From NCBI RefSeq assembly GCF_022834715.1, contig NZ_BQKC01000002.1, positions 1-64,000 of the forward strand: a stretch of 64,000 nucleotides of DNA, in the 5' to 3' direction. Every line of letters begins with the position of its first letter. The first letter of the stretch is position 1. Both the position numbers and the translations under genes were made by a program. The stretch comes from Granulimonas faecalis (GTDB lineage: Bacteria > Actinomycetota > Coriobacteriia > Coriobacteriales > Atopobiaceae). The notes under the pieces are model-generated. The model was not told the origin of the DNA. It ran no database searches and saw only the letters and a list, made by a program, of their open reading frames with translations. Below are positions 26,939-61,981 of this stretch, piece by piece.

Positions 26939-27723
26939 TGGGCCACCTTCCTGGGGCGGTCGTGGTTTCCCGTGCCGGAAAGGGCCCTGTCTGCGGCCCT
27001 TTCCGCCCGCTCGTTCACAGCTACGCTCCGTACAGACGACCGTACGGCCGGCCCCGGGATCATCCGGTCGAGGGCCCTGGCGACAAACGGGTCCCTCTCC
27101 GGGTCTGCCATGGTCGAGCTCGAGTTCCATCCCCGCAGGGCCTCTTCCAAGGGACGGTCCCTGACACCGCCTGCGAGGGAGGCGAGGGAGCAGAGCGCCG
27201 CCACGGCACCCATGGAGGCGGCGGCACGACATGCTTCGACAGGGTCTGTCGGTCCCATCTCGGCGATCCTGTCGGCGGCCCTGATGGCGAGGGAGCCCGG
27301 GCAGAACCGACCGATGGCCTCGGAGAACGCACGGTCGACGTCGCTGTCGGAGGCCTTGGAAACCGTGTTCCACGTCCTCAATGCCTCTTCCAAGGGGCGG
27401 TCGCGGACCTCTCCCGAGAGCAGCGCCATCGAGACGACGGCCCCCACGAGGGAGGCGGCCGCGGCCCTTCTTGCCTCCTCGGCGGCGGACTCCAGAGCCG
27501 TGTCGGAAGACAGCCGGCGGGCCCTCGCCGACACCTTCCCGGCCACGAAGATGGAGTCGTCGGGAAGGCCGTCGGGGTCCCCGTGCTGGGCGACCCAGCA
27601 GAGCGCCCCCGCGACGAGGGCGCGGTCGGAAACGTCCTCGCTCAGACCGAGCACCGACCGTGCCTCTTCCATGACCTTGGACGGGACCCTCACCCGGCGG
27701 GCGTCGGCGGCACGCTCAGCCAT
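26935..27723 (-). CDS. Uncharacterised protein with an internal duplication
   Basis: 262 residues. The N-terminus (RRVRVPSKVMEEARSVLG) resembles a ribbon-helix-helix or other DNA-binding strand-helix start. Two copies of GEVRDRPLEEALRxWN (about residues 104 and 187) mark an internal duplication of about 80 residues, each preceded by an Ala-rich helical stretch. No enzyme motif is visible. It overlaps its neighbours on both sides (8 bp upstream, 4 bp with the topoisomerase gene), so it is translationally coupled. Role unknown. Confidence 0.65.
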   Translation of the reverse strand: MAERAADARRVRVPSKVMEEARSVLGLSEDVSDRALVAGALCWVAQHGDPDGLPDDSIFVAGKVSARARRLSSDTALESAAEEARRAAAASLVGAVVSMALLSGEVRDRPLEEALRTWNTVSKASDSDVDRAFSEAIGRFCPGSLAIRAADRIAEMGPTDPVEACRAAASMGAVAALCSLASLAGGVRDRPLEEALRGWNSSSTMADPERDPFVARALDRMIPGPAVRSSVRSVAVNERAERAADRALSGTGNHDRPRKVAQ

Positions 27724-28102
27724 GGCTCTCCCCCACCACCTGCTCGTAGGCCCGCACGGCCTCGTCGAATCCGGCAGCGCCCACGCCTAGGGCGTGGGCC
27801 AGGAACCGCCCGACGGAAAGGTTCGCGTCGGTGGCAGCCAGCGCAGTCTTCTGAAGGGCCTCCATGGATGCGGTCCAGTCGGCCAGCGAGGCCTCCATGG
27901 AGGCCACCGCGAGGGCCATGGGGGCCTCGACCTCCCGACCGTGGCTGACCTCGTCATAGAGGTAGAGGGACCGCTCGACGTACTCCGAGCGGGAGACCCC
28001 ATCCCTTCTGGCCCCGAGCTCCAACAGGCGGGCCGTCTCGGGGCTCAGCCGCAGCTGCACGCGGACGTTCTTCTCCTTTACGGCCTGGGCGGCCACGGTC
28101 AC
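27716..28102 (-). CDS. Ribbon-helix-helix-like accessory protein
   Basis: 128 residues starting at a GTG at 28102 that overlaps the upstream stop (GTGA). Residues 10-50 (NVRVQLRLSPETARLLELG, then GVSRSEYVERS) have the strand-helix-helix pattern of ribbon-helix-helix DNA-binding proteins; the rest is helical. In conjugation operons such proteins often nick-site-bind as relaxosome accessories, or repress the operon. No relaxase is nearby, so either role is possible. Confidence 0.6.
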   Translation of the reverse strand: MTVAAQAVKEKNVRVQLRLSPETARLLELGARRDGVSRSEYVERSLYLYDEVSHGREVEAPMALAVASMEASLADWTASMEALQKTALAATDANLSVGRFLAHALGVGAAGFDEAVRAYEQVVGESHG

Positions 28103-29248: not shown

Positions 29249-30556
29249 ATGGCCGACCACCAGCCCCTGCAAGAGCTCCGCGAGGCCTCCAGACGGGTCC
29301 TCGTCTCCATAAAGGCCGTCCCGGGTCGCCTGAGGGAGGCCCTGACGGCGTCGCCGAACAAGGTCCGCAACCGCATCCTGGCCGCCGGCTGCTGCGCCGC
29401 CGCGGCCCTGCTGGTCGGCGCCGGGGCCTGGGCGGCGGCCGCCCCCGTCGCCCTGCCGGTGCCGGGGGAGCCGCCCGCCGCGGCCGACCAGGCCGCCGAC
29501 GACGGGGCGGCGGGGCCCGTGGCCGTGGCCCTGGAGGTGAGCGCCGAGGGCTACACGGAGCAGTCCAGCCCGCTCGTGGCCGTGGTGGAGCCCGTGGCCG
29601 ACGCCGGGGGCGACGGGGCCGACGGCCAGGGATCCGACGACGGCCCTGCGTCCCCCACCGAGGCCTTCGCCCACGCCGTGAGCGCGGAGGAGGTGTCCTC
29701 CGGCACGGCGTCGGTGGAGCTCAAGCCCGGCACCTACACCGTCTCCTTCGTCTCCCCCGTCAACCAGGACGGCTCCGTCTACAAGGTGCCCGAGCCCCAG
29801 GAGGTGACCGTGGCCGCACCGGAGGGCGAGGCCGACGACGGCGGTACGGCGCCCGAGTCCCCCAAGGTCGACGTAAAGCTCGACCCGGTGCCCGCCGACC
29901 AGGTGACCAAGGAGGACCTGGACAAGATCAAGTCCGACCTCGCCGACGCCGTGGCCAAGGGCGACGGCACCCTCTCCGGCGACGCCGGGTCCCAGGCCAC
30001 GGACAAGGCGGAGGAGAACGCCTCCAAGGCGCCGGCGTCCAAGCCGGCCGAGGGGGGGCAGAAGCCCGAGGAGAAACCCGCGGAGGAGAAGCCGTCAGAC
30101 GGCGGTCAGACGTCCGGGTCGTCCGGCAGCGGATCCTCCGGCGGCGGGCAGTCGTCCGGCGGCGGCAGCTCCTCCGGGGGCCAGTCCTCGAGCTCCGTCG
30201 GCTCCTCCGGTGGCGGCCAGTCTTCCGGCGGCAGCGGCTCCTCGGGCGGCGGCTCCACCGCCCCGGCCAAGAAGTGGGTCCCCGAGCAGGGCCACTACGA
30301 GCCCGTCTACGAGAACGTGTGGGTGCCGAACGTGCAGTACATCCGTCACCCGAAGTTCGTGTGCAACGGGTGCGGGGCGTCGTTCAGCTCCGTGGACGCC
30401 TGGGGCGATCACGACTTCGCCTACTGCGAGAAGGGAGACTTCTCCCACGGCACCTACCTCGACGACTCCTACACCGAAACCGTCGACAACGGCCGCTACG
30501 AGAAGAAGCAGACCGGCCAGAAGTGGGTCGTGGACGTCCCCGGCCACTGGGAGTGA
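29249..30556 (+). CDS. Membrane-anchored surface protein with a Ser/Gly stalk and C-terminal zinc-like module
   Basis: 435 residues. A basic N-terminus and one transmembrane helix (about 43-68) are followed by an extracellular region: a beta domain (about 80-210) with an SpaA-like end (GTYTVSFVSPVNQDG), a charged linker, a Ser/Gly repeat stalk (about 290-345) and a terminal module with CNGCGASFSS, a His and a further Cys that could bind zinc. The end (WVVDVPGHWE) is typical of secreted proteins in gut actinomycetes. The ATG at 29249 has a GAAGGGAAG site; longer frames upstream have no coding character. It has its own promoter and terminator. Confidence 0.75.
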   Translation: MADHQPLQELREASRRVLVSIKAVPGRLREALTASPNKVRNRILAAGCCAAAALLVGAGAWAAAAPVALPVPGEPPAAADQAADDGAAGPVAVALEVSAEGYTEQSSPLVAVVEPVADAGGDGADGQGSDDGPASPTEAFAHAVSAEEVSSGTASVELKPGTYTVSFVSPVNQDGSVYKVPEPQEVTVAAPEGEADDGGTAPESPKVDVKLDPVPADQVTKEDLDKIKSDLADAVAKGDGTLSGDAGSQATDKAEENASKAPASKPAEGGQKPEEKPAEEKPSDGGQTSGSSGSGSSGGGQSSGGGSSSGGQSSSSVGSSGGGQSSGGSGSSGGGSTAPAKKWVPEQGHYEPVYENVWVPNVQYIRHPKFVCNGCGASFSSVDAWGDHDFAYCEKGDFSHGTYLDDSYTETVDNGRYEKKQTGQKWVVDVPGHWE

Positions 30557-39187: not shown

Positions 39188-40111
39188 CTATTCCGTACGG
39201 GAGGTCTCATCGACCTCATAGGTGGGGTTCTCATCCAAGACCTTCTGCTTGGAGCTCTCGATCAAGGCATGGAACCGAGCAGGGAGAAGCCTGGTGGTAA
39301 GAGGGGCAGCCCCAATATCATCCACCACACTCTTTATCTGACCGAAGCAGATGGCATAGCGCTCGATGCGATCGTGGAGGTACCGGACCTCATTCTGGGA
39401 GAATCGGAGGTTCTCCTCTCCCCTCTTCCTCTCATCACCGAGCTCCTGCTTCAGAGAGGCGATTTCGTCGTCCTTCTCCTTGATCCTGTCCCTGAGCTCC
39501 TGGATCAACTCGGGAAGATAATCCCGGGCGGGCTGAGAGGAGAACGCTCGCCCCCCGTCCTGTGCCCCCGGCTGCCCCGTATCCCCAAGGTCACCGCCCG
39601 TAGGACCCGCCTCCTTGGCAGGCTCTGCCCCATCGCCGTCCAGACCTGAGGAGACGGAGACGAAGTCGACGTCCTCGGCCTCGTCGTCGGGACCGAAATG
39701 CCCGATCAGGCTGTCCCTGGCGACGGCATCGAGGTAGATGGACTCCCGACCGAAGCTCATGAAGCTCCATTTGACCCAGTGGCCGTTGTTGATGGGCCTT
39801 TTGATGAACTGCAGAGCGGTGGTGTATTTGAGGTCAAGTTGCTCCTGGACGAGCTTGAAGGGATATGGGAAGCGGTGGATCTTCTTAATCTCGGCGGCGC
39901 CATCGGCCGTAAGGAAGTAGTCTCCGTCCCTCTGGAGGCTGTTCAGCTCCACAAGCCGCGTCTTCTCGGTGCCGATCGTCGAGAAGAACTCGTCGACGGT
40001 CTCGCCATAGGAATCTATGAGCAGATTCTTCAGAGAGACTATGTACTGGTCCTTGCTCACGACGACCCCTTTACGTTCATAGCGACCCAGCAGGTTCCTA
40101 GTTACTGCCAT
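39188..40111 (-). CDS. Putative DNA-binding maintenance protein with C-terminal coiled coil
   Basis: 307 residues. The first 135 residues are compact and basic/aromatic (RNLLGRYERKG, then FPYPFKLVQEQLDLKYTTA), compatible with a winged-helix DNA-binding domain. A Gly/Asp-rich linker follows, then a coiled coil (about 195-240; ELIQELRDRIKEKDDEIASLKQELG) and a helical end. Its start (ATG 40111) is immediately beside the field of GTGAGTTCA sites, with one inverted pair ten bases upstream, so autoregulation and binding to that field are likely. Candidates are a replication co-factor, a centromere protein or a copy-control regulator. No close family recognised; no clear ribosome-binding site. Confidence 0.6.
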   Translation of the reverse strand: MAVTRNLLGRYERKGVVVSKDQYIVSLKNLLIDSYGETVDEFFSTIGTEKTRLVELNSLQRDGDYFLTADGAAEIKKIHRFPYPFKLVQEQLDLKYTTALQFIKRPINNGHWVKWSFMSFGRESIYLDAVARDSLIGHFGPDDEAEDVDFVSVSSGLDGDGAEPAKEAGPTGGDLGDTGQPGAQDGGRAFSSQPARDYLPELIQELRDRIKEKDDEIASLKQELGDERKRGEENLRFSQNEVRYLHDRIERYAICFGQIKSVVDDIGAAPLTTRLLPARFHALIESSKQKVLDENPTYEVDETSRTE

Positions 40112-40120
40112 TATGGACTA

Positions 40121-40990
40121 TGAACTTGTGAGTTCAAGTGGTAGTGCATATGTACCAGCATGTGAACTCAACTTGAGTCCACCTTGCAGTTCCAACTACA
40201 CATGCTGTCACGGAGACTACTCGACCAGATACCATCATGGGTTAGGTATTACGTGAGCTCAGAGTTGGTTTTACTGTCATCTTGCCATCCATCTGCACTC
40301 AATGTGAACTCATAGGTGCATCGATGTATGAATCCATGAGTTCACAGTCCATGGACTATTCGATGCTGTGAGTTCAGAATGCACTTTGAGGTCAATACAC
40401 CGTCACTTCTTGAGTTCAGAATGAACTCCCAGAATCACCCCATAATGTGACAATCAGAACCCGTGAGTTCAGATGCACTCTTCCCTTTTGACAACGCAAA
40501 GCGTCTACTATACGTTTTCCCAGCTACATATCGATAGGCTGGATGCATGCTTCATTATGGTTCTCTCAGTTCATGCGCCTGTGAGCTCAAAGTGAACTCA
40601 CAGGCGCATGAACCCTGGTCCCTTGTGCAACGGAAAAGCAAACCCAAAAACTCAGATTGAGCTCATAGCCAGACAACCAGCGAAACCCTGTGAGTTCATA
40701 TCGAGTGCAAACTGCACTCGTGAGAGTGAACCGTATGCTGGAGCTACCCGGACAAGATCGCCATAGACAGCCATCTAGCAGGCGCTACTTCAAGGACGGG
40801 TGCTTAAGCATGGACTTTTGAAATTCGACTCGGGAAAAACGGAGGGCTAGTTCCTTGAACTCAGAGAAACGCCTTTCTATGTGGGAGTGAGTTGACAGTG
40901 AACTCCCAAGTTCGTAGATAGTGCATCGCGAACTCTTGGCTTCATCGTCGTCGGAGTCTGCGAACTCAGGGGCCCCGAGCGAAAGACCGA
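40121..40990. repeat. Field of GTGAGTTCA / TGAACTCAC sites in a low-GC non-coding region
   Basis: At least a dozen copies of TGAGTTCA or its complement occur in both orientations, for example 40121-40136 (TGAACT-4-AGTTCA), 40161-40170, 40303-40312, 40334-40343, 40368-40376, 40410-40428, 40463-40471, 40580-40601, 40690-40698 and 40888-40903. The base composition drops sharply compared with the genes. No reading frame has coding character. This pattern suggests a protein-loading site such as a centromere or replication control region. Further copies lie at 41972-42000 and 43849-43900. Confidence 0.6.
40570..40612. repeat. 43-base palindrome inside the repeat field
   Basis: A 20-base arm, a three-base centre (AAG) and an inverted arm match at 19 of 20 positions. 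Each arm holds one TGAGNTCA site at its inner end and TTCATGCGCC at its outer end. It could form a cruciform or a strong paired binding site. Confidence 0.7.
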
Positions 40991-40999
40991 CAACCTGGA

Positions 41000-41760
41000 C
41001 ACAGCGGCCGACCCGTCGCAGGCAGGCGCCTCGGACGGGCCGCGGGCAGAGAAAGCTGTCTTCCCATGGCACCCGACGGAGGGGTGGGGGAGTGGTCGAG
41101 GAGCCCCAGGCTCCGAAGCCTTGGCCCGGTGATCTCCAGGACCCGTACCCCGGCAGGAAGACCTATCCACCGAAGCCAACGCACTGGACACCCCGAGACA
41201 CACCCGAAATCGCCTCGAACAGGCCCCCTCGCAACCTGGACTTTGGGCGAGACCCCACCACAGGCCTAGGTGAGGCGCCTCAGGTCGACCGGGGGAGGGC
41301 TCGACGGGCCTACAGGGCCACTGCCAAGGCCCTTCGAGCCACCGAAGAGGACAGGACGGCAGGGAAGGGCCCCACCAATCTACGGCTTGACATAACGACT
41401 GGTAGCAGAGATCCCCATCATGGCGGACCCCACCTCGATGGAGACGCAAGGTGCGAAGCGACCAAAGACGCTCGAACGGTATAGGAGACAGAGCCAGGCC
41501 TTCGAAGGCCGGAGAAGGCGGGTGAGAGCGATCCGCACGGCTCCAAACGAATCCGGTGGCCGAAGGAAGAGGTCGACGGACCATCAACGATCCCTCCCGT
41601 GGCACCAGCCACGGGAGGGTAAGGGAGTGGGGAGGGTGAGGACAGTCTTCCCGAAGCCTCTTCCTCACCCTCACCCTCCAGCACTGCCGTGAGTGGTGAG
41701 AAGGCCGGGTCCACCCCAGGCATACAGTCCAGGCTGATTCCCGCCCTTAGGTTGGCTCCT
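41000..41760. other. Non-coding stretch without a recognised gene
   Basis: Open frames here on both strands (for example leftward 40877-41674) have no start signals, biased composition or recognisable domains. The only structure I see is an 11-bp hairpin at 41592-41619 (CCCTCCCGTGG, six-base loop, CCACGGGAGGG) without a U-tract. Together with its flanks it makes a 2-kb gene-free zone between the putative DNA-binding protein and parR. Confidence 0.5.
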
Positions 41761-41763
41761 GTT

Positions 41764-41815
41764 CCTGTTAGCCTGTTGGCCTATTTGGCTGTCAGGATAA
41801 CAGGCTTACAGGATT
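41764..41815. repeat. 8-bp-phased array, possible centromere part 1
   Basis: Successive octamers TGTTAGCC, TGTTGGCC, TATTTGGC, TGTCAGGA, TAACAGGC and TTACAGGA share the TnTTnGCC pattern or its complement. It lies 310 bases before parR. Phased short repeats upstream of a ribbon-helix-helix gene are typical of parC sites. Confidence 0.45.
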
Positions 41816-41971
41816 TGTGGCCTTGGAACGAGTCGTAGGGGAGTGCGGCACCCGAAGAGATCCGCTGCATCGACTTCCGCCACTTTCACTGCATCATTTT
41901 GCTGTTTTTACCGGATTCAGTATTTTACATCTGTGTTTCTACAGCTTCATAGCTGCCGTCACACCATCTGT

Positions 41972-42000
41972 TTCTCCGAGTTCATCTTGAACTCGGAGAA
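41972..42000. repeat. 13-bp inverted repeat built from the GAGTTCA site
   Basis: TTCTCCGAGTTCA, TCT, TGAACTCGGAGAA: a perfect palindrome carrying the same core as the field at 40.1-41.0 kb, so probably another site for the same protein, 125 bases upstream of parR. Confidence 0.6.
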
Positions 42001-42031
42001 ACGTCCGTCGAAGTTCGTCGATTCGCCTGGA

Positions 42032-42085
42032 TTAGCTTCTGTTAGTCTATTAGCCTATCAGTCTGATAGACTAGTCAGGGAGTTT
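42032..42085. repeat. 8-bp-phased array, possible centromere part 2 (parC)
   Basis: The units TTAGTCTA, TTAGCCTA, TCAGTCTG, ATAGACTA follow one another without gaps, flanked by related sequence (TTAGCTTC, GTCAGGGA). The array ends about 40 bases before parR. ParR dimers of ribbon-helix-helix type load on such tandem repeats, and the same repeats usually repress the par promoter. Confidence 0.5.
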
Positions 42086-42125
42086 TCATTCAGCCTGGCT
42101 TTGCAGATCGGGAGGGGAGGTGACC

Positions 42126-42491
42126 ATGGCCACAATCACCATTTGGGTCCCGGAGGGCGAGCAGGAGGACACGACCTGGGAGTGGATCGAGAACCAAAGG
42201 AACCTCTCCCAGTCGATCAGGCTCCTCATCTCGGACCGGATAGAGGAGTCCGGCACGGCCGACATCTCTCCCGCCCCCCAGCGGAACACGCGAAGGCACC
42301 GCAGGGGAAGCACGAAGAGCGGCGGAGAAGGGGAGGGGAGCGCCCCCGCAAGCCCCACCGAGAGCAACCCGACCCACGGAACCCCGGGCAGCAACGCTGC
42401 AGAGACGACCGAGAAGGCGGCTGCCAAACCCGCGCAAACCGGCATCTCGGACCTCTTGGGAGACATGGGCTTCTCATCGGCCCTGAGCTAG
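42126..42491 (+). CDS. parR: ParR-like ribbon-helix-helix centromere-binding adaptor
   Basis: 121 residues. The N-terminal 45 residues (ITIWVPEGEQEDTTWEWI, then NLSQSIRLLISDRIEE) have the strand-helix-helix pattern of ribbon-helix-helix proteins. The rest is Ser/Pro/Glu-rich and disordered, ending in a hydrophobic patch (ISDLLGDMGFSSAL) that may contact the actin-like partner. The ATG at 42126 follows AGGGGAGG; a GTG two codons earlier is less well spaced. It precedes the actin gene by 34 bp. The order adaptor-then-filament is the reverse of classical parMR but like tubRZ. Confidence 0.7.
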   Translation: MATITIWVPEGEQEDTTWEWIENQRNLSQSIRLLISDRIEESGTADISPAPQRNTRRHRRGSTKSGGEGEGSAPASPTESNPTHGTPGSNAAETTEKAAAKPAQTGISDLLGDMGFSSALS

Positions 42492-42525
42492 ACCAACTCG
42501 ACATCAAAGGCAGAGAGGACATACT

Positions 42526-43746
42526 TTGGCGACCAGTAAGAAGCAGGGAAACACCTATTCCGTGACCGCCGGCCTCGACATCGGCAACGGCTATACCAAG
42601 GGCCGCGTCGACGTCGGCGGCACCGTCTACCCCGTGGACATCCCGAGTGCGATGGCCTACACCTCGGCCGCGCGCCTCGCTCAGCCGGTCTCCGAGGAGT
42701 CCCTCAGCGACCTTGCGAACTCCCTGGATGCGACGGTCCTTTCCCCGGCCATCCCCTCCGTCGACCGGGGCCGGGTCCTGTTCGGCAAGCGTGCCATCAC
42801 GAGCAAGTGGGACGAGATCCAGTTCCAAATCGACAGCCCCGTACCCAAGAGCCGCGAGTCCCTCTCGGTGATGCTCATCCTCGACGCGATCGTCAGCCAG
42901 GTCATCGCCGTCGCCGGCTTCAAGGGAACGCTTCCGACCGACATCGAGGTCGACGCCAAGCTGGCCCTCGCCCTGCCCATCGACGACTACCTCGGGCACC
43001 ACACCGAGTACCGCGAGTCGCTGATGCGTGAGCCCCACCGCGTCATCGTCCATAACTTCGGCACCGACGTGGAGGTAAAGACCACCTTCTCCGACGTGGT
43101 CGTCGTCGCGGAGGGCGTGGCGGCCCTCGCGGCGCTGAAGAACCGTGGCGAGGACTTCCTGGACAAGGTCGTCTCGTTCGAGAGGGCCTCTGGGGCCACG
43201 TTCGACGCGGCCTACACGGGGGAGGCCCTCGCCGCGGCACAGAACATCGTCGGTATCGACATCGGCGAGGGGACGACCAACTTCGCCGTCTTCACCAACG
43301 GAACCATCGACACGGACAACTCCAAATCCATCAACCGAGGGTTCGGAACGATCCTCGACGAGGTCCTCGACCTGCTTCGTCAGACGGACAGCGGTATTCC
43401 CGCAGATTCCCGCGGCGCGCTAGAGAAGATCCTTCTCAGCGAGCCCACGCTCCCGAAGCAGCAGAGAATCAAGGCCCGCGTGGAGAAAGAGCTTCAAAAG
43501 GTGATCCCGACCTTCGTCAACCGGGTCACCAAGACCTTCTCCAACGTCTGGCGCAGCGTCGGTGCCCAGGTGGAGGTGGTCTACATCTACGGCGGGGGAG
43601 CGAGCTTCGTCCGGGACGCCTTGGTCCCGAGGATCTCCCAGGCGACCGAGTCCGACGGGATGGAGACCCCGGTCATCTGCCTCGACTCCTCCTACTCACG
43701 CGTCCTGAACGCGGACGGCCTCTTCCGAGCCGCAAAGAACCTCTAG
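42526..43746 (+). CDS. parM: ParM-like actin ATPase for plasmid segregation
   Basis: 406 residues from a TTG at 42526 behind AGAGAGGA; the preceding frame offers no ATG in a better place. Actin-fold signatures are visible: phosphate 1 (TAGLDIGNGYTKGR, about 14-27), phosphate 2 (VGIDIGEGTTNFAVF, about 242-256) and the adenosine motif (YIYGGGASF, about 349-357). The protein would polymerise with ATP and push plasmid copies apart via ParR bound to the upstream repeats. A strong terminator follows. Family assignment firm; which ParM/Alp subgroup cannot be told by eye. Confidence 0.85.
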   Translation: MATSKKQGNTYSVTAGLDIGNGYTKGRVDVGGTVYPVDIPSAMAYTSAARLAQPVSEESLSDLANSLDATVLSPAIPSVDRGRVLFGKRAITSKWDEIQFQIDSPVPKSRESLSVMLILDAIVSQVIAVAGFKGTLPTDIEVDAKLALALPIDDYLGHHTEYRESLMREPHRVIVHNFGTDVEVKTTFSDVVVVAEGVAALAALKNRGEDFLDKVVSFERASGATFDAAYTGEALAAAQNIVGIDIGEGTTNFAVFTNGTIDTDNSKSINRGFGTILDEVLDLLRQTDSGIPADSRGALEKILLSEPTLPKQQRIKARVEKELQKVIPTFVNRVTKTFSNVWRSVGAQVEVVYIYGGGASFVRDALVPRISQATESDGMETPVICLDSSYSRVLNADGLFRAAKNL

Positions 43747-43767
43747 CCCCGAGGCAGCTCTTAGGCG

Positions 43768-43801
43768 AAAGGCCCCCGGACTTCGGTCCGGGGGCCTTTT
43801 C
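43768..43801 (+). terminator. Rho-independent terminator of parRM
   Basis: AAAGGCCCCCGGAC, TTCG tetraloop, GTCCGGGGGCCTTTT: a 14-bp stem with a T-run, 22 bases after the parM stop. Confidence 0.95.
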
Positions 43802-44135
43802 TTACGGCGCTCGAAGGTTCATGGATGCAATCGGATCAATGAGTCTGCGAGTTCATATTCATTTTCATGTTGATGCACTTCAACGGCCCTTCTTGAACTC
43901 ATTTTGGACTCAGGGGGTCAAAGCCGTCGTCGTTGCCAACTTACACCGTCGTTTACCTGCGCGTTTTTGGAAACTCACTTGGGGTCGGCCGGAGTCTCTG
44001 AGTCCACGGCCACAGCAAAGCCGGTTACATGCGTTGCGCTTGAAGGCCATCTGGCACTCACTGCCTCTGGGGAAGGGTTCGAGACGGCGCCGTCGATCCG
44101 AAGTCACAGGACCACGGACCAAGGAGGACCGCCGG
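43802..44135. other. Non-coding stretch before the iterons
   Basis: No gene recognised. It contains further GAGTTCA/TGAACTCA half-sites (43849-43857, 43893-43900), suggesting that the protein encoded at 39188 may also act at the origin. Open frames on both strands lack coding character. Confidence 0.5.
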
Positions 44136-44560
44136 CCCATGTCGGGATCTTCAAGCCCCCGCCTCGACCCATGTCGGGATTCATTCCGGGCCATGTCGGG
44201 AAAAGGGGCCAGCACGAAGGGGGTCACACGGATCCGAAGGGGGATAACCGCTGGTAGAACCTTGTCGGGAAACACCCGAGGGACCTAGTCGGGATTCACC
44301 CGAAACAGAGGGGCCGACCTAGTCGGGAAGTAAGAGCCCGAGAGCGGAGGAGATGGCCCAGGTCTCCAGCCCCCCAGGTGAGACCTAGTCGGGAAATAGC
44401 CGTGAACAGGGAGCGCCACGCCCCGGGGAGCCACCGGCGGAAGAGGCGGCCGTCACCCGGAGGGGAAGGGAAACCAGTCGGCAACAAAGGGGAAAGGCAA
44501 CCTATAGGCGCAATTCCCGACATAGATACTGATAAGAAGATAGGGATAAGAGATTTGGAT
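44136..44560. other. oriV: Putative iteron-type origin of replication
   Basis: Seven direct copies of CCWWGTCGGGA occur at 44138-44147, 44169-44179, 44191-44201, 44261-44270, 44284-44294, 44318-44328 and 44384-44394 (boundaries within a base or two), plus one inverted copy (CCCGACATAG) at 44515-44524. Spacing is irregular (22-70 bp). An AT-rich stretch with GATA motifs (44520-44560) lies beside the inverted copy and could be the unwinding region. The array lies upstream of the initiator candidate at 44974. Origin function is inferred. Confidence 0.65.
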
Positions 44561-44973: not shown

Positions 44974-46602
44974 ATGGCTATTATCACCTCTCCCTCAACG
45001 AAATGCAAGACCCACAACCCCGCAACCGGGTGCCCATCTCGCCGCACCCATGGGAGGAAGTCGCCCCGCCGCGGTCTGGTGGCAGACCAGGGGCTTGAGG
45101 TCGGGATGCGTGTCGTGGCACCGGAGGTCTCGGTCTACAGGCCGAACCTGGCCATCAACCACCACAACAGGATCGACGCATCCCTCGTCGCCGTCGTTGC
45201 CGAGGAGGCCCGGGAGCACCCGGAGACCCCCATCCTGTCGCTGCCCTCCATGCCCCGATGCGCCGTCAAGGCCCTCGACGCCATATCCCGCAGGGCCTGG
45301 GCCCTCTGGGCGGCGAAGGGGGAGTCCTGCGGCGGGGCCGACGCGTCCTTCACCGCTTCCCGGGCCGAGCTCATGGACGCCTGCGGCCTCAGCAAGGACC
45401 TCTACTACTCGGCCATCGCCTTCTTGGTCCTCTGCGGGTACATCGCGCTCTACAACACCGGCTACAGCGGGGGGCGCTGGACGTGCGGCAGGGTCGTCTG
45501 CCTCGTCGCCCCCGAGGTGGCCGGCGTCTCCTCCGACGACTACTCGTCGGCCGCCGCCTCCGCCATGGGCGCCGTCGATCTCGGCCGCGAGCCTGTGGCC
45601 GTGGACCCCGCCTCCACGGCCCGCAAGGCCCTCACCGACGCCGCCGGCGCCCTGTGGCGGGCCCGCGAGAGGCGCTGTGGCGCCCAGGCCATGGCGGGTC
45701 TCGGCGCCGACGCCCCCAAGAAGGTGGCGGACGCCATCGAGGCCCTGATCGGCGACGGCCTCATCCGCACCCCCGAGGATGCCGTGACCGCCTGGGAGCT
45801 CTACTGCGCCGACCAGGACCGTCAGGGGGTGGCCGTCGCCAAGACGGCCCATCTGATGAAATTCCTCGACATTTCCTGGCCCTTGGGCATCGTGCACTAC
45901 CTCTCCGTCGTCTGTCCCCCGGACATCTCCCCCGACTCCGACCGGGTGCTCGAGAGGGCGCGGGAGAGGGCGCGGGGGCTCGCGGCAGCCCAGCCGCGCC
46001 GGGACGACGCTGGTGGGACCGATGGCGACGGGGTCAAGGAACCGGCAAGCCCGTTCGCTGCGCCGCTGCCCGGGGAGGGGCCCTGCCCGGAGCACCCCCT
46101 CGACCCGTCGCTCGTCATCGACGGACGCGCCTCCGGGCCGATCTCCTACGAGGAGGTCCTCGCGGCCTCCTACTGGGTCTGCGGTTGCGGGGCCGTTGTC
46201 GCCAAAGACTTCTTCGGGTGGATGGAGAAGGATGGGTGGACCCGGAGGAACGGCACCGTCAAGGTGAGCCGGGCGAACCTCGTCGAGTCCGTTCACGAGT
46301 GCGCCCGCAGGGACCACGGGGTCCACAGCTTCTCACTCGAGCCCAAGGAGATGCTCGTCGTCCAGTACCCCGACCAGCAGGCCTACGAGGCCATGACCCC
46401 CAGGGACGGGCCCGCCGACTACGAGTCCTACAACCTCGACCTCAGGTCGAGGGTCGCCAGGAAGGCCATGGAGGCCGGTGTCTGGCCCGTCTTCGTTTCC
46501 GTCGCCCCGGATGCCTACCGCTCCGTGGACCCATGGTCCGCGTCCATGACCCCCGAGCAACAGGTCTCACAGCGCCATGCGATGGAGGCGGGGATCCTCT
46601 GA
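44974..46602 (+). CDS. Putative plasmid replication initiator
   Basis: 542 residues. Residues about 80-170 (MPRCAVKALDAISRRAWALW, then SRAELMDACGLSKDLYYSAI) look like a winged-helix DNA-binding domain of the RepA/DnaD type. A helical middle part (about 200-320) follows, and a C-terminal region with a CGCG motif (YWVCGCGAVVAKDFFG) that may bind zinc. Position directly downstream of an iteron array and AT-rich zone supports an initiator role. The ATG at 44974 has only a weak purine stretch upstream. No specific Rep family is recognised, so the call rests on fold pattern and context. Confidence 0.5.
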   Translation: MAIITSPSTKCKTHNPATGCPSRRTHGRKSPRRGLVADQGLEVGMRVVAPEVSVYRPNLAINHHNRIDASLVAVVAEEAREHPETPILSLPSMPRCAVKALDAISRRAWALWAAKGESCGGADASFTASRAELMDACGLSKDLYYSAIAFLVLCGYIALYNTGYSGGRWTCGRVVCLVAPEVAGVSSDDYSSAAASAMGAVDLGREPVAVDPASTARKALTDAAGALWRARERRCGAQAMAGLGADAPKKVADAIEALIGDGLIRTPEDAVTAWELYCADQDRQGVAVAKTAHLMKFLDISWPLGIVHYLSVVCPPDISPDSDRVLERARERARGLAAAQPRRDDAGGTDGDGVKEPASPFAAPLPGEGPCPEHPLDPSLVIDGRASGPISYEEVLAASYWVCGCGAVVAKDFFGWMEKDGWTRRNGTVKVSRANLVESVHECARRDHGVHSFSLEPKEMLVVQYPDQQAYEAMTPRDGPADYESYNLDLRSRVARKAMEAGVWPVFVSVAPDAYRSVDPWSASMTPEQQVSQRHAMEAGIL

Positions 46603-49909: not shown

Positions 49910-50731
49910 ATGGCCGAGACGATCATGAGGAAGCGGGGTACGCGCGGCCTCTGGATCACCCCTAGGGAGGCAAGGTCCCTCCTTGTCCCCGTCATCATCG
50001 GAGACGTCGACGCCGCGGCGGTATGGACGGGGACCGAGAGGGTCCACATCCTGTCCGCCGTCATCGACGGCAACGACGACGCCCACTCCATGGGGGCTCT
50101 GCGAAGCCTCTGCAGGGCCTACGGCCTGCCCCTCCCCGTCGCAGACGGGGCCCCGTCTGCCAGGGCGTGCCTGTTCGCCGAGCGCCTCGCGTTCTGCATG
50201 GACGCCCTGTCCCTGGACAAGAGCGAGGTCGTGCAGAGGACGGGCTTCACCCCCCAGGCGGTGGACAGCTGGCTTACCGCCTCCAGGCAGAGCCCCTGGA
50301 CCTCCTCCATGAACCGCATGGCCAAGACCCTGGGGGTCCCCCCGAAGGACCTCTACGAGAGCAAGACCCCCTCCCAGCGCCTCGTGAAGGACATCGTGAA
50401 GAGGGCCATGAGGGCATCGGGCCACACCGTCATGTCCCTGGCGGACCGCTGCGGCACCGCCCCGGCCACCATGAATGCCCTGATCGACGGCCGCTGCCCG
50501 GTCCCCTTGGGCACCCTCGATTCGATCTCCGGGGTTCTCGGTGTCGCACCCTCGGCCATGTGCGAGGGCATGAGGGACGTCTCCGGCGAGATCGAGCAGG
50601 CCGTCGCCGTCCTGTCCTCCCACGCCAGGCACCTCACGGGCTCCCAGGCCAACCGCCTGGCCGACGCCATGGATACCTGGTACCGCGTGAACGACGTGTC
50701 GGTCGTCTCGCTCGTCGGCACGGGTCTGTGA
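49910..50731 (+). CDS. Regulator with two helix-turn-helix domains
   Basis: 273 residues. Residues 1-70 are beta-rich. About 90-145 (LDKSEVVQRTGFTPQAVDSW) and 160-215 (MSLADRCGTAPATMNALIDG) each match a Cro/C1-type helix-turn-helix. Two such domains in tandem are uncommon in small regulators. The ATG at 49910 has a long GA-rich ribosome-binding site. It lies 13 bp before nrdD and might regulate it, but no operator is visible. Confidence 0.65.
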   Translation: MAETIMRKRGTRGLWITPREARSLLVPVIIGDVDAAAVWTGTERVHILSAVIDGNDDAHSMGALRSLCRAYGLPLPVADGAPSARACLFAERLAFCMDALSLDKSEVVQRTGFTPQAVDSWLTASRQSPWTSSMNRMAKTLGVPPKDLYESKTPSQRLVKDIVKRAMRASGHTVMSLADRCGTAPATMNALIDGRCPVPLGTLDSISGVLGVAPSAMCEGMRDVSGEIEQAVAVLSSHARHLTGSQANRLADAMDTWYRVNDVSVVSLVGTGL

Positions 50732-50744
50732 GAGAGGGTTCGTC

Positions 50745-52952
50745 ATGAAGATCATCAAGCGAGACGGCACCGAGCAGGCCTTTGACCGTTCCAAGATAGA
50801 GGCCGCCATCCGCGGGGCCAACGGCGACGTGGCCGAGGCCGACCGCATCAGCGACCTTCAGGTCCGGATCACCTGCGACGCGGTGTGCGCCGTGGTGCAG
50901 AACCGCTTCGAGATGGAGGGGCGCGTCCCGGAGGTGGAGGAGGTCCAGGACCTCATCGAGGACCAGTTCATGCTCCTCAACCGCTTCGAGCTTGCCCGGG
51001 CCTTCGAGCGCTACCGCCACAGGCGCGAGCTCGCCCGCCGCGCCAACACCACCGACGACGCGGTCCTGTCGCTTCTGGCCCTGGCCAACGAGGAGGCCAA
51101 GGGGGAGAACGCCAACAAGGACCCCGTGCTCATCTCCACACAGCGCGACTACATGGCAGGGGAGGTCTCCCGCGACATCACGAGGCGTATCCTGCTCCCC
51201 GAGGAGGTCTCCAGGGCCCACGACGAGGGCGTCATCCACTTCCACGACGCCGATTACTTCGCTCAAAACTCATATAATTGCGAGCTTGTTAACCTCGAGG
51301 ACATGCTGCAGAACGGCACCGTCATCTCCGAGACCCGCATCGAGAAGCCCCACTCCTTCTCCACGGCCTGCAACATCGCCACCCAGATCATCGCCCAGGT
51401 GGCCTCCAACACCTACGGGGGCCAGACCCTGTCTTTGGCCCACCTCTCGCCCTTCGTGGAGGTGTCGCGCCGCCGCATCCGCGAGAGGGTGCGCTCCGAG
51501 CTCTCCGACGCCGGCGTCCGCGCCTCCGACGACCAGGTGGCCTCCATCGTCTCCGAGCGCCTGGCCGACGAGGTGACCCGCGGCGTCCAGACCATCCAGT
51601 ACCAGATCCTGACCCTGCTCACCACCAACGGCCAGACCCCCTTCGTCTCGCTCAACCTCGACCTCGGGGAGGTGCCCGAGGGGCCCGAGCGAGACGACCT
51701 GGCCATGGTCGTGGCCGAGGTGCTGCGCCAGCGCATCCAGGGGGTGCAGAACGAGGCGGGGGCCTGGATCACCCCGGCCTTCCCGAAGCTCCTCTACGTC
51801 CTCGACGACCACAACGTCGGCGAGGGCGCCCCCTACGGGTGGCTGACGAGGCTCGCCGCCGAGTGCACCGCGAGGCGCATGGTGCCCGACTACATCAGCG
51901 CCAAGGTCATGCGCCGGGAGAAGGGCGACGTGTACCCCTGCATGGGCTGCCGCTCCTTCCTCACCCCCGACCGCTTCAGCGAGACTACCGGGGACCCCTC
52001 CGGGGCACTCACGGCGTCTGCCCACCCCCGCAAGTATTACGGGCGCTTCAACCAGGGTGTGGTCACCGTCAACCTGCCCGACGTGGCCCTCTCCGCCGCG
52101 GGCGACGAGGGGCGCTTCTGGGAGATCCTCGACGAGCGCCTGGAGCTCTGCCACAGGGCCCTGCGCATCCGCCACGAGCACCTCCTGGGCACACCCTCCG
52201 ACGTCGCCCCGATCCTCTGGCAGCACGGCGCCATCGCCCGCCTGCCACGCCACGCCGTCATCGACCCGCTGCTCTACGGGGGCTACTCCACGATCTCCCT
52301 GGGCTACGCCGGGCTCCACGAGTGCTGCGTGGCCATGTTCGGCCGCGGCCACACCGACCCCGCCGTCACGCCGTTCGCCCTGGCCGTCATGGAGCGCCTG
52401 AACGACAGGTGCGCCCAGTGGAAGGCCGCCGAGGACATCGACTACTCGGTCTACGGCACGCCCCTGGAGTCCACCACCTACAAGTTCGCCAGGTGCCTCA
52501 GACGCCGCTTCGGCGTCGTGGAAGGCGTCACCGACCACGATTACATCACCAACAGCTACCACGTGAACGTCAGGGAGCAGATCGACGCCTTCGCCAAGCT
52601 TGCCTTCGAGAGCGACTTCCAGCGCCTGTCCCCGGGAGGGGCCATCTCCTACGTGGAGGTGCCCGACATGAAGGGCAACGTCGAGGCCGTCATGGCCCTT
52701 ATCTCCTTCATCCACGACCACATCATGTACGCCGAGCTCAACACCAAGAGTGACTACTGCCAGGAGTGCGGCTACGACGGCGAGGTGGCGGTCGTGGAGG
52801 AGGACGGCAGGCTCCTGTGGGAGTGCCCCCGCTGCGGCAACCGCGACCAGTCGACCCTGAACGTCGCGAGGCGCACCTGTGGCTACATCGGGACCCAGTT
52901 CTGGAACCAGGGCCGCACCGAGGAGATCCGCGACCGCGTCCTGCACCTTTGA
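50745..52952 (+). CDS. nrdD: Anaerobic (class III) ribonucleoside-triphosphate reductase
   Basis: 735 residues, near the usual length. An ATP-cone domain (KIIKRDGTEQAFDRSKIEAA) begins the protein, the active-site cysteine region is VYPCMGCRSFL (about 400), two CxxC pairs near the end (YCQECG and CPRCG) bind zinc, and the glycyl-radical site is RRTCGYIGTQFWNQGR. It reduces NTPs to dNTPs without oxygen, providing DNA precursors in an anaerobe. The activating enzyme NrdG is not in the window and would have to come from elsewhere on the element or the host. A short low-GC patch (51259-51294) encodes the conserved AQNSYNCELVN segment. Confidence 0.95.
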   Translation: MKIIKRDGTEQAFDRSKIEAAIRGANGDVAEADRISDLQVRITCDAVCAVVQNRFEMEGRVPEVEEVQDLIEDQFMLLNRFELARAFERYRHRRELARRANTTDDAVLSLLALANEEAKGENANKDPVLISTQRDYMAGEVSRDITRRILLPEEVSRAHDEGVIHFHDADYFAQNSYNCELVNLEDMLQNGTVISETRIEKPHSFSTACNIATQIIAQVASNTYGGQTLSLAHLSPFVEVSRRRIRERVRSELSDAGVRASDDQVASIVSERLADEVTRGVQTIQYQILTLLTTNGQTPFVSLNLDLGEVPEGPERDDLAMVVAEVLRQRIQGVQNEAGAWITPAFPKLLYVLDDHNVGEGAPYGWLTRLAAECTARRMVPDYISAKVMRREKGDVYPCMGCRSFLTPDRFSETTGDPSGALTASAHPRKYYGRFNQGVVTVNLPDVALSAAGDEGRFWEILDERLELCHRALRIRHEHLLGTPSDVAPILWQHGAIARLPRHAVIDPLLYGGYSTISLGYAGLHECCVAMFGRGHTDPAVTPFALAVMERLNDRCAQWKAAEDIDYSVYGTPLESTTYKFARCLRRRFGVVEGVTDHDYITNSYHVNVREQIDAFAKLAFESDFQRLSPGGAISYVEVPDMKGNVEAVMALISFIHDHIMYAELNTKSDYCQECGYDGEVAVVEEDGRLLWECPRCGNRDQSTLNVARRTCGYIGTQFWNQGRTEEIRDRVLHL

Positions 52953-58378: not shown

Positions 58379-59479
58379 ATGATCGTATCCGTGGCACCCG
58401 ACGCCCTGGCCGCCGCCGTGGCCTCGGTGTCCAAGGTCACCGCCACCGTGGCCGAGACCCCGGTGCTCGCCGGCGTGCTCCTCGTCGCCGACGCCTCCGG
58501 GACCCTTTCCGTGACCGGCACCGACGGCCTTCGCTCGGCCAGGCTCTCCGTGCCCGCCCAGGTGGAGGAGCCTGGGGCTGCCGTGGTGTCCGCCAGGACC
58601 CTGGCGAGGGTGGCCAAGAGCCTTCCCGGCGGCGTCTGCTCCCTGGAGGGCTCGGGGGCCTTCTTGAAGGTCTCCTCCGGGCGCTCCCGGTTCAGCCTCC
58701 AGGCCCTACCCCCGAAGGACTTCCCGGCGTTTCCCGAGGTGTCCCCGGACTCGTCGGCGGAGCTTCCCGCGGAGGTCCTGGCAGACCTCGTCGGCCGGGT
58801 CCGCCGGTTCGCCTCCAAGGACCTGTCCCGGCCGATCCTGTGCTCGGTGGCCGTGGAGGTGGCCTCGGGGCGCCTCACCCTGAAGGCCACCGACGGCTAC
58901 CGCCTGGCGGTGGCCTCGGCGGGGCTCGCAGACGATGGCGCCTCCTTCTCGGCCCTGCTTCCGGCCGACGCCCTGGCCGAGGCCGTGGCCATGGCCTCCG
59001 GGGCCGAGGGCCTGTCCGTGGGCCGCGGGGGAGGCCAGTGGGTGGTCTCCTGGCGGGGCGGCTCCTACGTGTGCCGCCTCGTGGAGGGGTGCTACCCCGA
59101 GGCGGAGAGCCTCTTCCCCACGACGACCTCCTGCACCCTGGGGCTCCCTTTGGGCCCCTTCCTCGACGCCCTGTCCCGGGTGGCCCTGGTGGCCAAGGAG
59201 AACCCCCGGGTGCGCCTGGACGTCCGCGCCTCAGAGGGGGAGGTGGCGGTCTCGGCCGCCAGCGGCGAGGTGGGGGACGCCTCGGACTCGGTGGGGTGCT
59301 CCGTGGAGGGCACGCCGGTGGCCGTGGGTCTCAACTATCGCTTCCTCGCCGACGCCCTGGCGGCCTTCGACGGCCGGGAGGCGGTGTCCCTGGGGATGTC
59401 CGGCGAGATGGCCCCGGCGGTGCTCTCCTCCCCGGGGTCCCCTGAGGTGCGCTGCCTCGTCATGCCTACCCGGCTCTGA
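58379..59479 (+). CDS. dnaN: DNA polymerase III beta sliding clamp
   Basis: 366 residues, the normal length for the clamp. Three repeated domains can be followed, with PVLAGVLLVADASGTLSVTG at the end of the first, DGYRLAVA in the second (the usual TDxxRLA motif) and CLVMPTRL at the C-terminus, like the LIMPxRL end of DnaN. The clamp tethers polymerases, including Y-family enzymes such as the one encoded at 60725. A plasmid-borne copy suggests partly independent replication or repair. ATG at 58379 behind GAGAGAAGGG. Confidence 0.9.
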   Translation: MIVSVAPDALAAAVASVSKVTATVAETPVLAGVLLVADASGTLSVTGTDGLRSARLSVPAQVEEPGAAVVSARTLARVAKSLPGGVCSLEGSGAFLKVSSGRSRFSLQALPPKDFPAFPEVSPDSSAELPAEVLADLVGRVRRFASKDLSRPILCSVAVEVASGRLTLKATDGYRLAVASAGLADDGASFSALLPADALAEAVAMASGAEGLSVGRGGGQWVVSWRGGSYVCRLVEGCYPEAESLFPTTTSCTLGLPLGPFLDALSRVALVAKENPRVRLDVRASEGEVAVSAASGEVGDASDSVGCSVEGTPVAVGLNYRFLADALAAFDGREAVSLGMSGEMAPAVLSSPGSPEVRCLVMPTRL

Positions 59480-60674: not shown

Positions 60675-60698
60675 GCTACACTGTAGAACGGATGTTCG
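60675..60698 (+). promoter_or_regulatory. SOS (LexA) box and promoter of the Y-family polymerase cassette
   Basis: AGAACGGATGTTCG (60685-60698) fits the Gram-positive/actinobacterial LexA operator pattern GAAC-N4-GTTC. A TACACT minus-10-like hexamer lies just upstream (60678-60683). LexA would therefore repress the cassette until DNA damage. Confidence 0.7.
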
Positions 60699-60724
60699 GT
60701 AACGGGGTCTTCAGGGGGTGTGCC

Positions 60725-61981
60725 ATGGGGGAGGCGGCCAGGGTCTGCCTGTGCATCGACCTTCGGAGCTTCTACGCCACGGTGGAGGCGGTTGACCGCG
60801 GCCTGGACCCCATGGAGGCCCGGCTCGTGGTGGCCGACCCCGACCGCTCCGCCAACACCATCTGCCTGGCCGTCTCCCCGCGCCTGAAGGCCGAGGGCGT
60901 CAGGAACCGCTGCCGGATGCGCGAGGTGCCGAAGGACCGTGGCATCGTCGTCGCGAGGCCCCGCATGGCCCGGTACCTGGAGGCCTCCTGCGAGGTGGTG
61001 GCGTGCCTTCTGGAGCACGTCTCGGCCGACGACGTCCACGTCTACTCCGTGGACGAGTCCTTCATAGAGATCGGTCCCTACCTGCCCTACTACGGCCTCA
61101 CACCGAGGGCCATGGCCAAGCGCCTCCAGGAGGCGGTGGCGGAGCGGCTCGGATACCCCGCCACCTGCGGGCTGGGGCCGAACCTGTTCGTGGCCAAGGT
61201 GGCCCTGGACGTGCTCGCCAAGCACGACACCGAGGGCATCTGCGAGCTGGACCTGCCCGCCTTCTACCGTGACATCTGGTTCCACCGCCCCATCACCGAC
61301 ATCTGGCAGGTGGGGCCGGGCACGGCCCGGAGGCTCGCCTCCGCGGGGATCGTCGACCTCGCGGGGGTGGCCGCGGCAGACCCCAAGGAGATCTCCCGCC
61401 TCCTGGGACCTGCCCGGGCCCGGCTCCTCGTGGACCACGCCTGGGGCCTGGAGCCTGCGACCGTTTCCGAGGTCTCGGCCTGGGAGCCCAAGGGCAAGAG
61501 CCTCACCCGGGGCCAGGTGCTCATGAGGGACTACACCACGGCCGAGGCCGCCACGGTGGTCCGGGAGATGGCCGACGAGCTGGCGCTTTCCGCCGAGGCC
61601 GACGGCTGGGACGCCCAAGGGGTGTCGCTTTACGTGGGCTACTCCGGCGACACGTGGCCGGCCACGGGAGGGTCCCGTCCCCTGGAGGGCCGCCTCACCG
61701 CCCACGGGGTCGCCGAGGCGGCGGTTGCGGTGTTTGCCGCCACGGCCTATCCCGGGGTGCCCATAAGGAGGGTCAACGTGACCCTCACGGGGCTTACCCG
61801 CGAGGGCCAGCCGCGGCTCTTCGACCCGGCCTCCGCCGACCCCCGCCGACAGCGCCTGGACGAGGCCCGAAGGGCCGTGGCGGCCCGCTTCGGGAAGGCC
61901 TCGGTGCTCCTCGCCTCGAGCCTCCTTCCCGAGGGCACCGCCAGGGACCTCGCCGGGCGCATCGGGGGCCACCGTGCGTGA
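60725..61981 (+). CDS. Y-family (UmuC/DinB-type) error-prone DNA polymerase
   Basis: 418 residues. Motif CIDLRSFYATVEAV at the start supplies the first metal-binding Asp; VYSVDESFIEIG (about 120) supplies the catalytic DE pair; GLGPNLFVAKVALD and the helix-hairpin-helix-like WQVGPGTARRLASAGI follow, then the little-finger domain. Gram-positive mobile elements often carry this UvrX/UmuC type. The ATG at 60725 behind AGGGGG is preferred over ATG 60692, which overlaps the SOS box. It heads a cassette with YolD-like and DUF6504-like genes. It permits damage tolerance or mutagenesis; the nearby clamp could be its processivity factor. Confidence 0.9.
   Translation: MGEAARVCLCIDLRSFYATVEAVDRGLDPMEARLVVADPDRSANTICLAVSPRLKAEGVRNRCRMREVPKDRGIVVARPRMARYLEASCEVVACLLEHVSADDVHVYSVDESFIEIGPYLPYYGLTPRAMAKRLQEAVAERLGYPATCGLGPNLFVAKVALDVLAKHDTEGICELDLPAFYRDIWFHRPITDIWQVGPGTARRLASAGIVDLAGVAAADPKEISRLLGPARARLLVDHAWGLEPATVSEVSAWEPKGKSLTRGQVLMRDYTTAEAATVVREMADELALSAEADGWDAQGVSLYVGYSGDTWPATGGSRPLEGRLTAHGVAEAAVAVFAATAYPGVPIRRVNVTLTGLTREGQPRLFDPASADPRRQRLDEARRAVAARFGKASVLLASSLLPEGTARDLAGRIGGHRA

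What the first reader, a model, noticed from the sequence alone, without database searches (positions are those of the whole stretch)
40112..44000. A dispersed family of GTGAGTTCA sites spanning the maintenance region
More than a dozen sites in both orientations fill 40.1-41.0 kb, recur as a palindrome at 41972-42000, and reappear at 43849-43900 next to the iterons. They begin ten bases from the start of the 307-residue coiled-coil protein. It looks like a second, non-ParR partition or replication-control system built on one protein and many sites.
Basis: partly seen in the sequence, partly recalled or inferred. Interest (0 to 1): 0.6.

Follow-up and report, generated by a model that had tools for sequence, protein, structure and literature searches.

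The report
Dispersed partition sites around a ParRM operon
A large circular plasmid carries about two dozen copies of a short near-palindromic DNA sequence clustered around its partition genes; their paired, one-helical-turn spacing is what known ParR partition proteins bind, so they are most likely an unusually long, scattered plasmid centromere and not a new one-protein system.

Summary
The 147-kb circular element carries 14 exact TGARYTCA boxes, all between 40129 and 43901; 13 lie in 40129-40863 (0.14 expected from shuffles of that stretch). The box is nearly its own reverse complement, so "both orientations" means little. The added finding is geometry: boxes are often paired as 8 bp + 3 bp + 8 bp, an 11-bp repeat. 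Nine such units (up to 2 mismatches) lie at 40163-43912; the 2.08-Mb chromosome has one poor match. The clusters bracket a parR-parM operon (42126-43746). Upstream of several related par operons 11 bp is the leading repeat period, and a Clostridium ParR was shown by others to bind two imperfect 8-bp repeats separated by 3 bp. Best reading: an extended, scattered parC centromere plus parR operator, read by ParR. The rival, that the orphan coiled-coil protein (39188-40111) reads them as a StbA/KfrA/pSK1-Par-like system, stays open: the main array abuts that gene, and R388 StbA boxes also repeat every 11 bp. A second, unrelated box family (tandem CTRWYAGN) also sits at the parR promoter, so which protein binds which family needs a binding assay. 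Nothing about function was shown directly.

The parts
40112..41010 (.). Main array: AT-rich (about 45-53% GC against 70% for the element) non-coding stretch with 13 exact and 22 near TGARYTCA boxes
40163..40181 (.). Two-box unit TGAACTCA-act-TGAGTCCA (8+3+8)
40294..40312 (.). Two-box unit TGCACTCA-atg-TGAACTCA
40411..40429 (.). Two-box unit TGAGTTCA-gaa-TGAACTCC
40569..40613 (.). Long palindrome (21-bp arms, 95%) centred on the perfect two-box unit TGAGCTCA-aag-TGAACTCA (40582-40600)
40647..40665 (.). Two-box unit AAAACTCA-gat-TGAGCTCA (2 mismatches)
40691..40709 (.). Two-box unit TGAGTTCA-tat-CGAGTGCA (2 mismatches)
40888..40906 (.). Two-box unit TGAGTTGA-cag-TGAACTCC (2 mismatches)
41970..42002 (.). 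Perfect palindrome (15-bp arms) around two-box unit CGAGTTCA-tct-TGAACTCG (41977-41995), about 130 bp upstream of parR: probable parR operator
43848..43912 (.). Downstream cluster: single box 43848 and two-box unit TGAACTCA-ttt-TGGACTCA (43894-43912), between the parM terminator hairpin and the Rep iterons
42126..42491 (+). parR-like gene (121 aa); N-terminus aligns with ParR-position proteins of Streptomyces and Rhodococcus plasmids (30, 19, 18% identity); ribbon-helix-helix assignment by sequence inspection; proposed reader of the boxes
42526..43746 (+). parM-like actin-family ATPase gene (406 aa)
39188..40111 (-). Orphan protein, 307 aa (or 290 aa from GTG 40060): N-terminal domain of unknown fold plus a C-terminal coiled coil; rival reader of the boxes
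41765..41812 (.). Second, different box family: tandem 8-bp CTRWYAGN boxes (first cluster)
42039..42078 (.). Second box family, tandem CTRWYAGN, just upstream of parR (further clusters at element positions 109503-109542 and 111025-111056, outside the window)
43768..43799 (+). Hairpin (14-bp arms) then T-rich stretch after parM: probable terminator
44133..44398 (+). GTCGGGA iterons upstream of a putative replication gene (44974-46602); a separate repeat family

Best explanation
The TGARYTCA boxes are binding sites of the ParR protein encoded at 42126-42491. Together they form an extended, scattered parC centromere of the plasmid's own type II (ParMRC) partition system. ParR is inferred to be a ribbon-helix-helix dimer; one dimer would sit on each 8-bp near-palindromic box, and two dimers pair on an 8+3+8 bp unit, one helical turn apart on the same face. 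Many ParR copies on the 0.9-kb AT-rich array would build the complex that captures ParM filaments. The palindromic unit about 130 bp before parR would serve as the operator for autoregulation, and the downstream copies extend the region or link it to the rep iterons. Shown: sites, spacing, confinement, operon, relatives' 11-bp repeats. Inferred: binding by ParR, wrapping, autoregulation, partition.
For: (1) Units of 8+3+8 bp: ten matches at up to 2 mismatches in the whole genome, nine at plasmid 40163-43912 and one weak in 2.08 Mb of chromosome; reversed control 0. Five lag-11 pairs among 22 array sites: 39 of 20000 random placements reach that at any lag of 8-30. (2) Clusters lie before parR, at its promoter and after parM, nowhere else on 147 kb. 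(3) Upstream of relatives' par operons 11 bp is the leading repeat lag in Streptomyces L021, R. fascians L023, L026, L028, L029 and L030; B. subtilis L042 leads with 22 then 11, and L024 and L039 have 11 second. In L021 the 11-bp boxes (GTGTCTC/GGGACAC) are scattered in both orientations over about 0.45 kb before parR. (4) Published: ParR_B of pJIR4165 binds two imperfect 8-bp repeats separated by 3 bp, and deleting the 3 bp abolishes binding; R1 ParR needs at least two 11-bp repeats (PMC9426499). (5) parM is an actin-family match and the parR N-terminus aligns with relatives.
Against: The main array lies 1.1-2 kb from parR but directly next to the orphan gene. A second family of tandem 8-bp boxes (CTRWYAGN), a layout also typical of ribbon-helix-helix proteins, sits nearer the parR start and could be ParR's instead. 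An 11-bp period is not specific to ParR: R388 StbA boxes have it. Several relatives do not lead with 11 bp (L022, L027, L031, L033, L034, L036, L037, L038, L040, L041), and L029/L030 are not independent. ParR has no significant Pfam hit. Known parC sites are mostly compact direct repeats.
Confidence: 0.5

Rival explanations
1. The orphan protein at 39188-40111 binds the boxes through its N-terminal domain and oligomerises by its coiled coil. It controls its own gene, parRM and rep, and acts as a second, motor-less stability system, working like R388 StbA, pSK1 Par or KfrA.
For: The array fills the 0.9 kb directly upstream of this gene. In the R388 control, StbA boxes sit before stbA and again as 11-bp-spaced pairs or triplets in other maintenance promoters, the same layout (PMC3098194). 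A coiled coil is predicted with confidence (pLDDT about 90 at residues 201-230).
Against: No similarity to StbA or KfrA, no KfrA_N or other DNA-binding domain in Pfam or NCBIfam, no relative in plasmids, phages, IMG/VR or 395 genomes of the order beyond coiled-coil matches. The N-terminal fold is not predicted. The unit geometry is met by ParR relatives that lack this protein in the stretch read.
Confidence: 0.32
2. The boxes are read by another plasmid or host factor (for example the ribbon-helix-helix protein at 27716-28102, or a regulator elsewhere on the element) and serve as a copy-number or transfer-control region.
For: Other DNA-binding proteins are encoded on the element (RHH at 27716-28102, HTH at 49910-50731). 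Sites also lie beside the rep iterons.
Against: No boxes occur near those genes or near the relaxase (140592-142289), and the chromosome has no comparable units, which argues against a host regulator.
Confidence: 0.13
3. Chance or repeat drift in an AT-rich stretch without function.
For: The stretch is AT-rich relative to the element, and some boxes share flanks, as duplications would.
Against: 13 exact boxes against 0.14 in shuffles of the same stretch; a fixed 11-bp pairing; copies at three separated places.
Confidence: 0.02

Closest known systems
Type II ParMRC partition systems, in particular ParR_B/parC_B of C. perfringens pJIR4165 (PMC9426499) and R1 parC
   Same: Actin-like ParM gene with a small parR gene, repeats upstream of the operon, 8-bp boxes separated by 3 bp (11-bp period).
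   Different: Here parR precedes parM. Boxes are near-palindromic and sparse, spread over 0.9 kb plus separate copies at the parR promoter and downstream of parM; R1 parC is two compact sets of 11-bp direct repeats.
ParRM region of the Streptomyces sp. NBC_01454 plasmid (L021)
   Same: parR-parM order, ParM about 30% identical, scattered 7-8-bp boxes in both orientations repeating at 11 bp before parR.
   Different: Different box sequence (GTGTCTC/GGGACAC), array directly before parR, no orphan coiled-coil gene in the stretch read.
StbA/stbDR of plasmid R388 (PMC3098194)
   Same: Short boxes at an 11-bp period, one array upstream of the protein gene and further copies in other maintenance promoters.
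   Different: StbA is a 141-aa protein without similarity to the orphan here, and the R388 repeats are direct.
KfrA of RA3 (PMC7783346) and the single-protein Par of pSK1 (cited in PMC5016525)
   Same: DNA-binding protein with coiled coil encoded beside its repeated operator.
   Different: No sequence similarity to RA3 KfrA; the KfrA operator is five 9-bp repeats over one promoter; the pSK1 protein was not compared here.
Omega/parS of pSM19035 (reviewed in PMC5016525)
   Same: One ribbon-helix-helix protein reads repeat clusters at several promoters, including copy control, and these also act as centromere.
   Different: 7-bp contiguous heptads and a ParA-type motor; here an actin-like motor gene.

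Membership tests
Type II ParMRC partition system | Actin-like ParM ATPase | tested here: met
   Pfam MreB-like_C 1.6e-10 and ALP_N 6.9e-7, above cut-offs; glycine-rich nucleotide-binding residues invariant in the alignment with relatives
Type II ParMRC partition system | Adjacent small DNA-binding ParR (ribbon-helix-helix) | tested here: inconclusive
   Gene of 121 aa directly before parM; N-terminus aligns with ParR-position proteins of relatives but no significant family hit
Type II ParMRC partition system | parC: repeats near the operon with the spacing that ParR uses | tested here: met
   8+3+8 units, 11-bp lag, as in several relatives and PMC9426499
Type II ParMRC partition system | ParR binds these repeats; array stabilises the plasmid and shows incompatibility | not testable with these tools
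   needs SPR/EMSA and stability assays
R388 StbA family | Sequence similarity of the array-adjacent protein to StbA | tested here: not met
   BLASTP against R388 StbA, E 0.12 over 20 residues
KfrA family | KfrA_N DNA-binding domain / similarity to KfrA | tested here: not met
   No KfrA_N hit at E up to 10; BLASTP against RA3 KfrA E 4.2, coiled coil only
KfrA family | Long C-terminal coiled coil | tested here: inconclusive
   Single-sequence model gives helix 193-265, confident only at 201-230
pSK1 Par (single-protein partition) | Sequence similarity to pSK1 Par | not tested
   pSK1 Par was not fetched; only literature mention
ParB/parS (type I) | ParB or ParA homologue beside the sites | tested here: not met
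   No ParA/ParB family hit for the four proteins flanking the sites

The most novel reading that the evidence does not exclude
The orphan coiled-coil protein reads the TGARYTCA boxes as a self-sufficient, motor-less partition and regulation system that works alongside ParMRC and also controls the parR promoter and the rep region, from a protein family with no known relatives.
Probability: 0.25. Interest if true: 0.6.

Novelty: new variant of a known kind. Interest (0 to 1): 0.42.

Why it matters
If right, it shows that a plasmid centromere for an actin-like motor need not be a compact block of direct repeats: about ten paired boxes can be scattered over 0.9 kb with outliers at the operon promoter and downstream of the motor gene. 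The 8+3+8 rule gives a simple way to predict ParR sites, and thus partition incompatibility, in diverged ParRM systems whose box sequences share nothing. It also leaves a sharp question: why an orphan coiled-coil gene sits against the array.

Tried and rejected
Arrangement by helical phase of the single boxes: not significant once 11-bp pairs are collapsed (p 0.43). Structured RNA in 40990-41700: weak folding z-scores (-1.5 and -2.2), no bacterial Rfam family. Structure prediction of the orphan, whole and N-terminal domain: unusable (mean pLDDT 45 and 34), so no fold search was run. Homologues of the orphan: none in plasmids, phages, IMG/VR, genome contigs or the order. Relatives of the putative Rep: none useful. 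ParM relatives in 396 genomes of the phylum: none beyond the window's own. The closest ParM relative, L026, has only a few 11-bp boxes (TGTCCAAAAA) before parR, not a long array. LexA-type operator (GAAC-N4-GTTC) considered and dropped: the half-sites point the other way (sequence inspection). Chromosomal TGARYTCA sites are mostly TGAGCTCA and unpaired, so not followed.

Full report
Context. The window is bases 1-64000 of a 146,863-bp contig in a 2.23-Mb, two-contig genome. The contig is very probably a circle: one minus-strand reading frame stays open across its two ends. It encodes type IV secretion genes, a coupling protein and a MobL-type relaxase, so it is probably a conjugative plasmid; its overall GC content is 70%. 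The host was not identified.

Observation. TGAGTTCA occurs 11 times in the window (0.57 expected) and TGARYTCA 14 times on the whole plasmid, all between 40129 and 43901. The stretch 40112-41010 holds 13 exact and 22 near boxes, against 0.14 and 2.2 in shuffles of the same AT-rich stretch. The palindromes and the 43.8-43.9 kb copies are as described. The box is nearly its own reverse complement, so its orientation is not informative. The orphan gene probably starts at GTG 40060 rather than ATG 40111.

Anatomy. The boxes are often paired with a 3-bp gap (8+3+8, period 11). At up to two mismatches the genome has ten such units: nine on the plasmid at 40163-43912 and one weak match in the chromosome; the reversed control pattern has none. 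Lag 11 is the most over-used short spacing between boxes (7 pairs in 40112-44010; p about 0.002 against random placement within the array for any lag 8-30). Clusters lie in the array, about 130 bp before parR inside a perfect palindrome, and after the parM terminator. They bracket parR (42126-42491) and parM (42526-43746). parM is an actin-family match above the Pfam cut-offs.

Relatives. The nearest annotated ParM relatives are on Rhodococcus, Gordonia and Streptomyces plasmids (30-33% identity). Those whose surroundings were read (two Rhodococcus, one Streptomyces) have a small gene directly before parM whose N-terminus aligns with parR here. A lag analysis upstream of the par operons found 11 bp as the leading repeat period in Streptomyces L021, R. 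fascians L023, IMG/VR L026, L028, L029 and L030; B. subtilis L042 leads with 22 bp then 11, and L024 and L039 have 11 bp second. Other relatives do not show it. In the Streptomyces plasmid the boxes are scattered in both orientations over about 0.45 kb before parR, the layout closest to the window.

Literature. [quoted passage not shown] R1 ParR needs at least two 11-bp repeats (PMC9426499). The same geometry in the window is the strongest argument for ParR as reader.

The rival. The orphan 307-aa protein abuts the array. R388 StbA shows that an 11-bp box period with copies in several maintenance promoters can belong to a single-protein system (PMC3098194). But the orphan has no similarity to StbA or RA3 KfrA, no family hit, no relatives and no usable model, so nothing ties it to DNA binding except position.

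A complication. A second family, tandem 8-bp CTRWYAGN boxes without gaps, lies at 41765-41812 and 42039-42078, just before parR, and again at 109503-109542 and 111025-111056, far from any par gene. It could be ParR's operator instead. I favour TGARYTCA for ParR because relatives use the 11-bp period and because TGARYTCA, unlike CTRWYAGN, is confined to the par region; this is inference.

Verdict. Real feature; most likely an extended, scattered parC of a type II partition system (0.5), with the orphan-protein system as rival (0.32). No binding or stability was measured.

Noticed in passing
window 1-3696 (-) continuing across the contig ends to element position 144437: One minus-strand frame stays open for about 2,000 codons across the contig ends, with RNA polymerase beta-like (GDKLCDKSGNKGVIS; Rpb2_6 E 6e-4, below cut-off) and beta'-like (YDGDFDGD; Rpb1_2 E 3e-8) motifs: a plasmid-encoded fused RNA-polymerase-like protein.
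   Followed up: partly
41765-41812, 42039-42078; element 109503-109542 and 111025-111056 (L013:5503-5542, 7025-7056): Second dispersed box family: three to five gapless tandem 8-bp boxes (CTRWYAGN) at exactly four places on the plasmid, two before parR and two at the edges of a 1.5-kb GC-rich stretch without an apparent gene.
   Followed up: partly
L012:10538-13796 (element 94538-97796): Plasmid-borne type I-C-like cas5, Csd1 (cas8c) and cas7 genes; cas3 and a repeat array were not looked for.
   Followed up: no
58379-59479, 60692-61981, 50745-52952; L013:8522-10300: The plasmid carries its own DNA polymerase III beta clamp, Y-family polymerase, anaerobic ribonucleotide reductase and a RecJ-like protein.
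   Followed up: no
29249-30556 (+) and element 132664-133971 (+): Two predicted 435-aa proteins of equal length whose first 40 residues are identical: probably a duplicated mobile-element gene.
   Followed up: no
41010-41750: GC-rich stretch without a convincing gene, ending in two strong hairpins (41591-41690); no bacterial Rfam match.
   Followed up: partly
L011:1297-4193 (element 65296-68193): MmeI-like fused restriction-modification protein.
   Followed up: no
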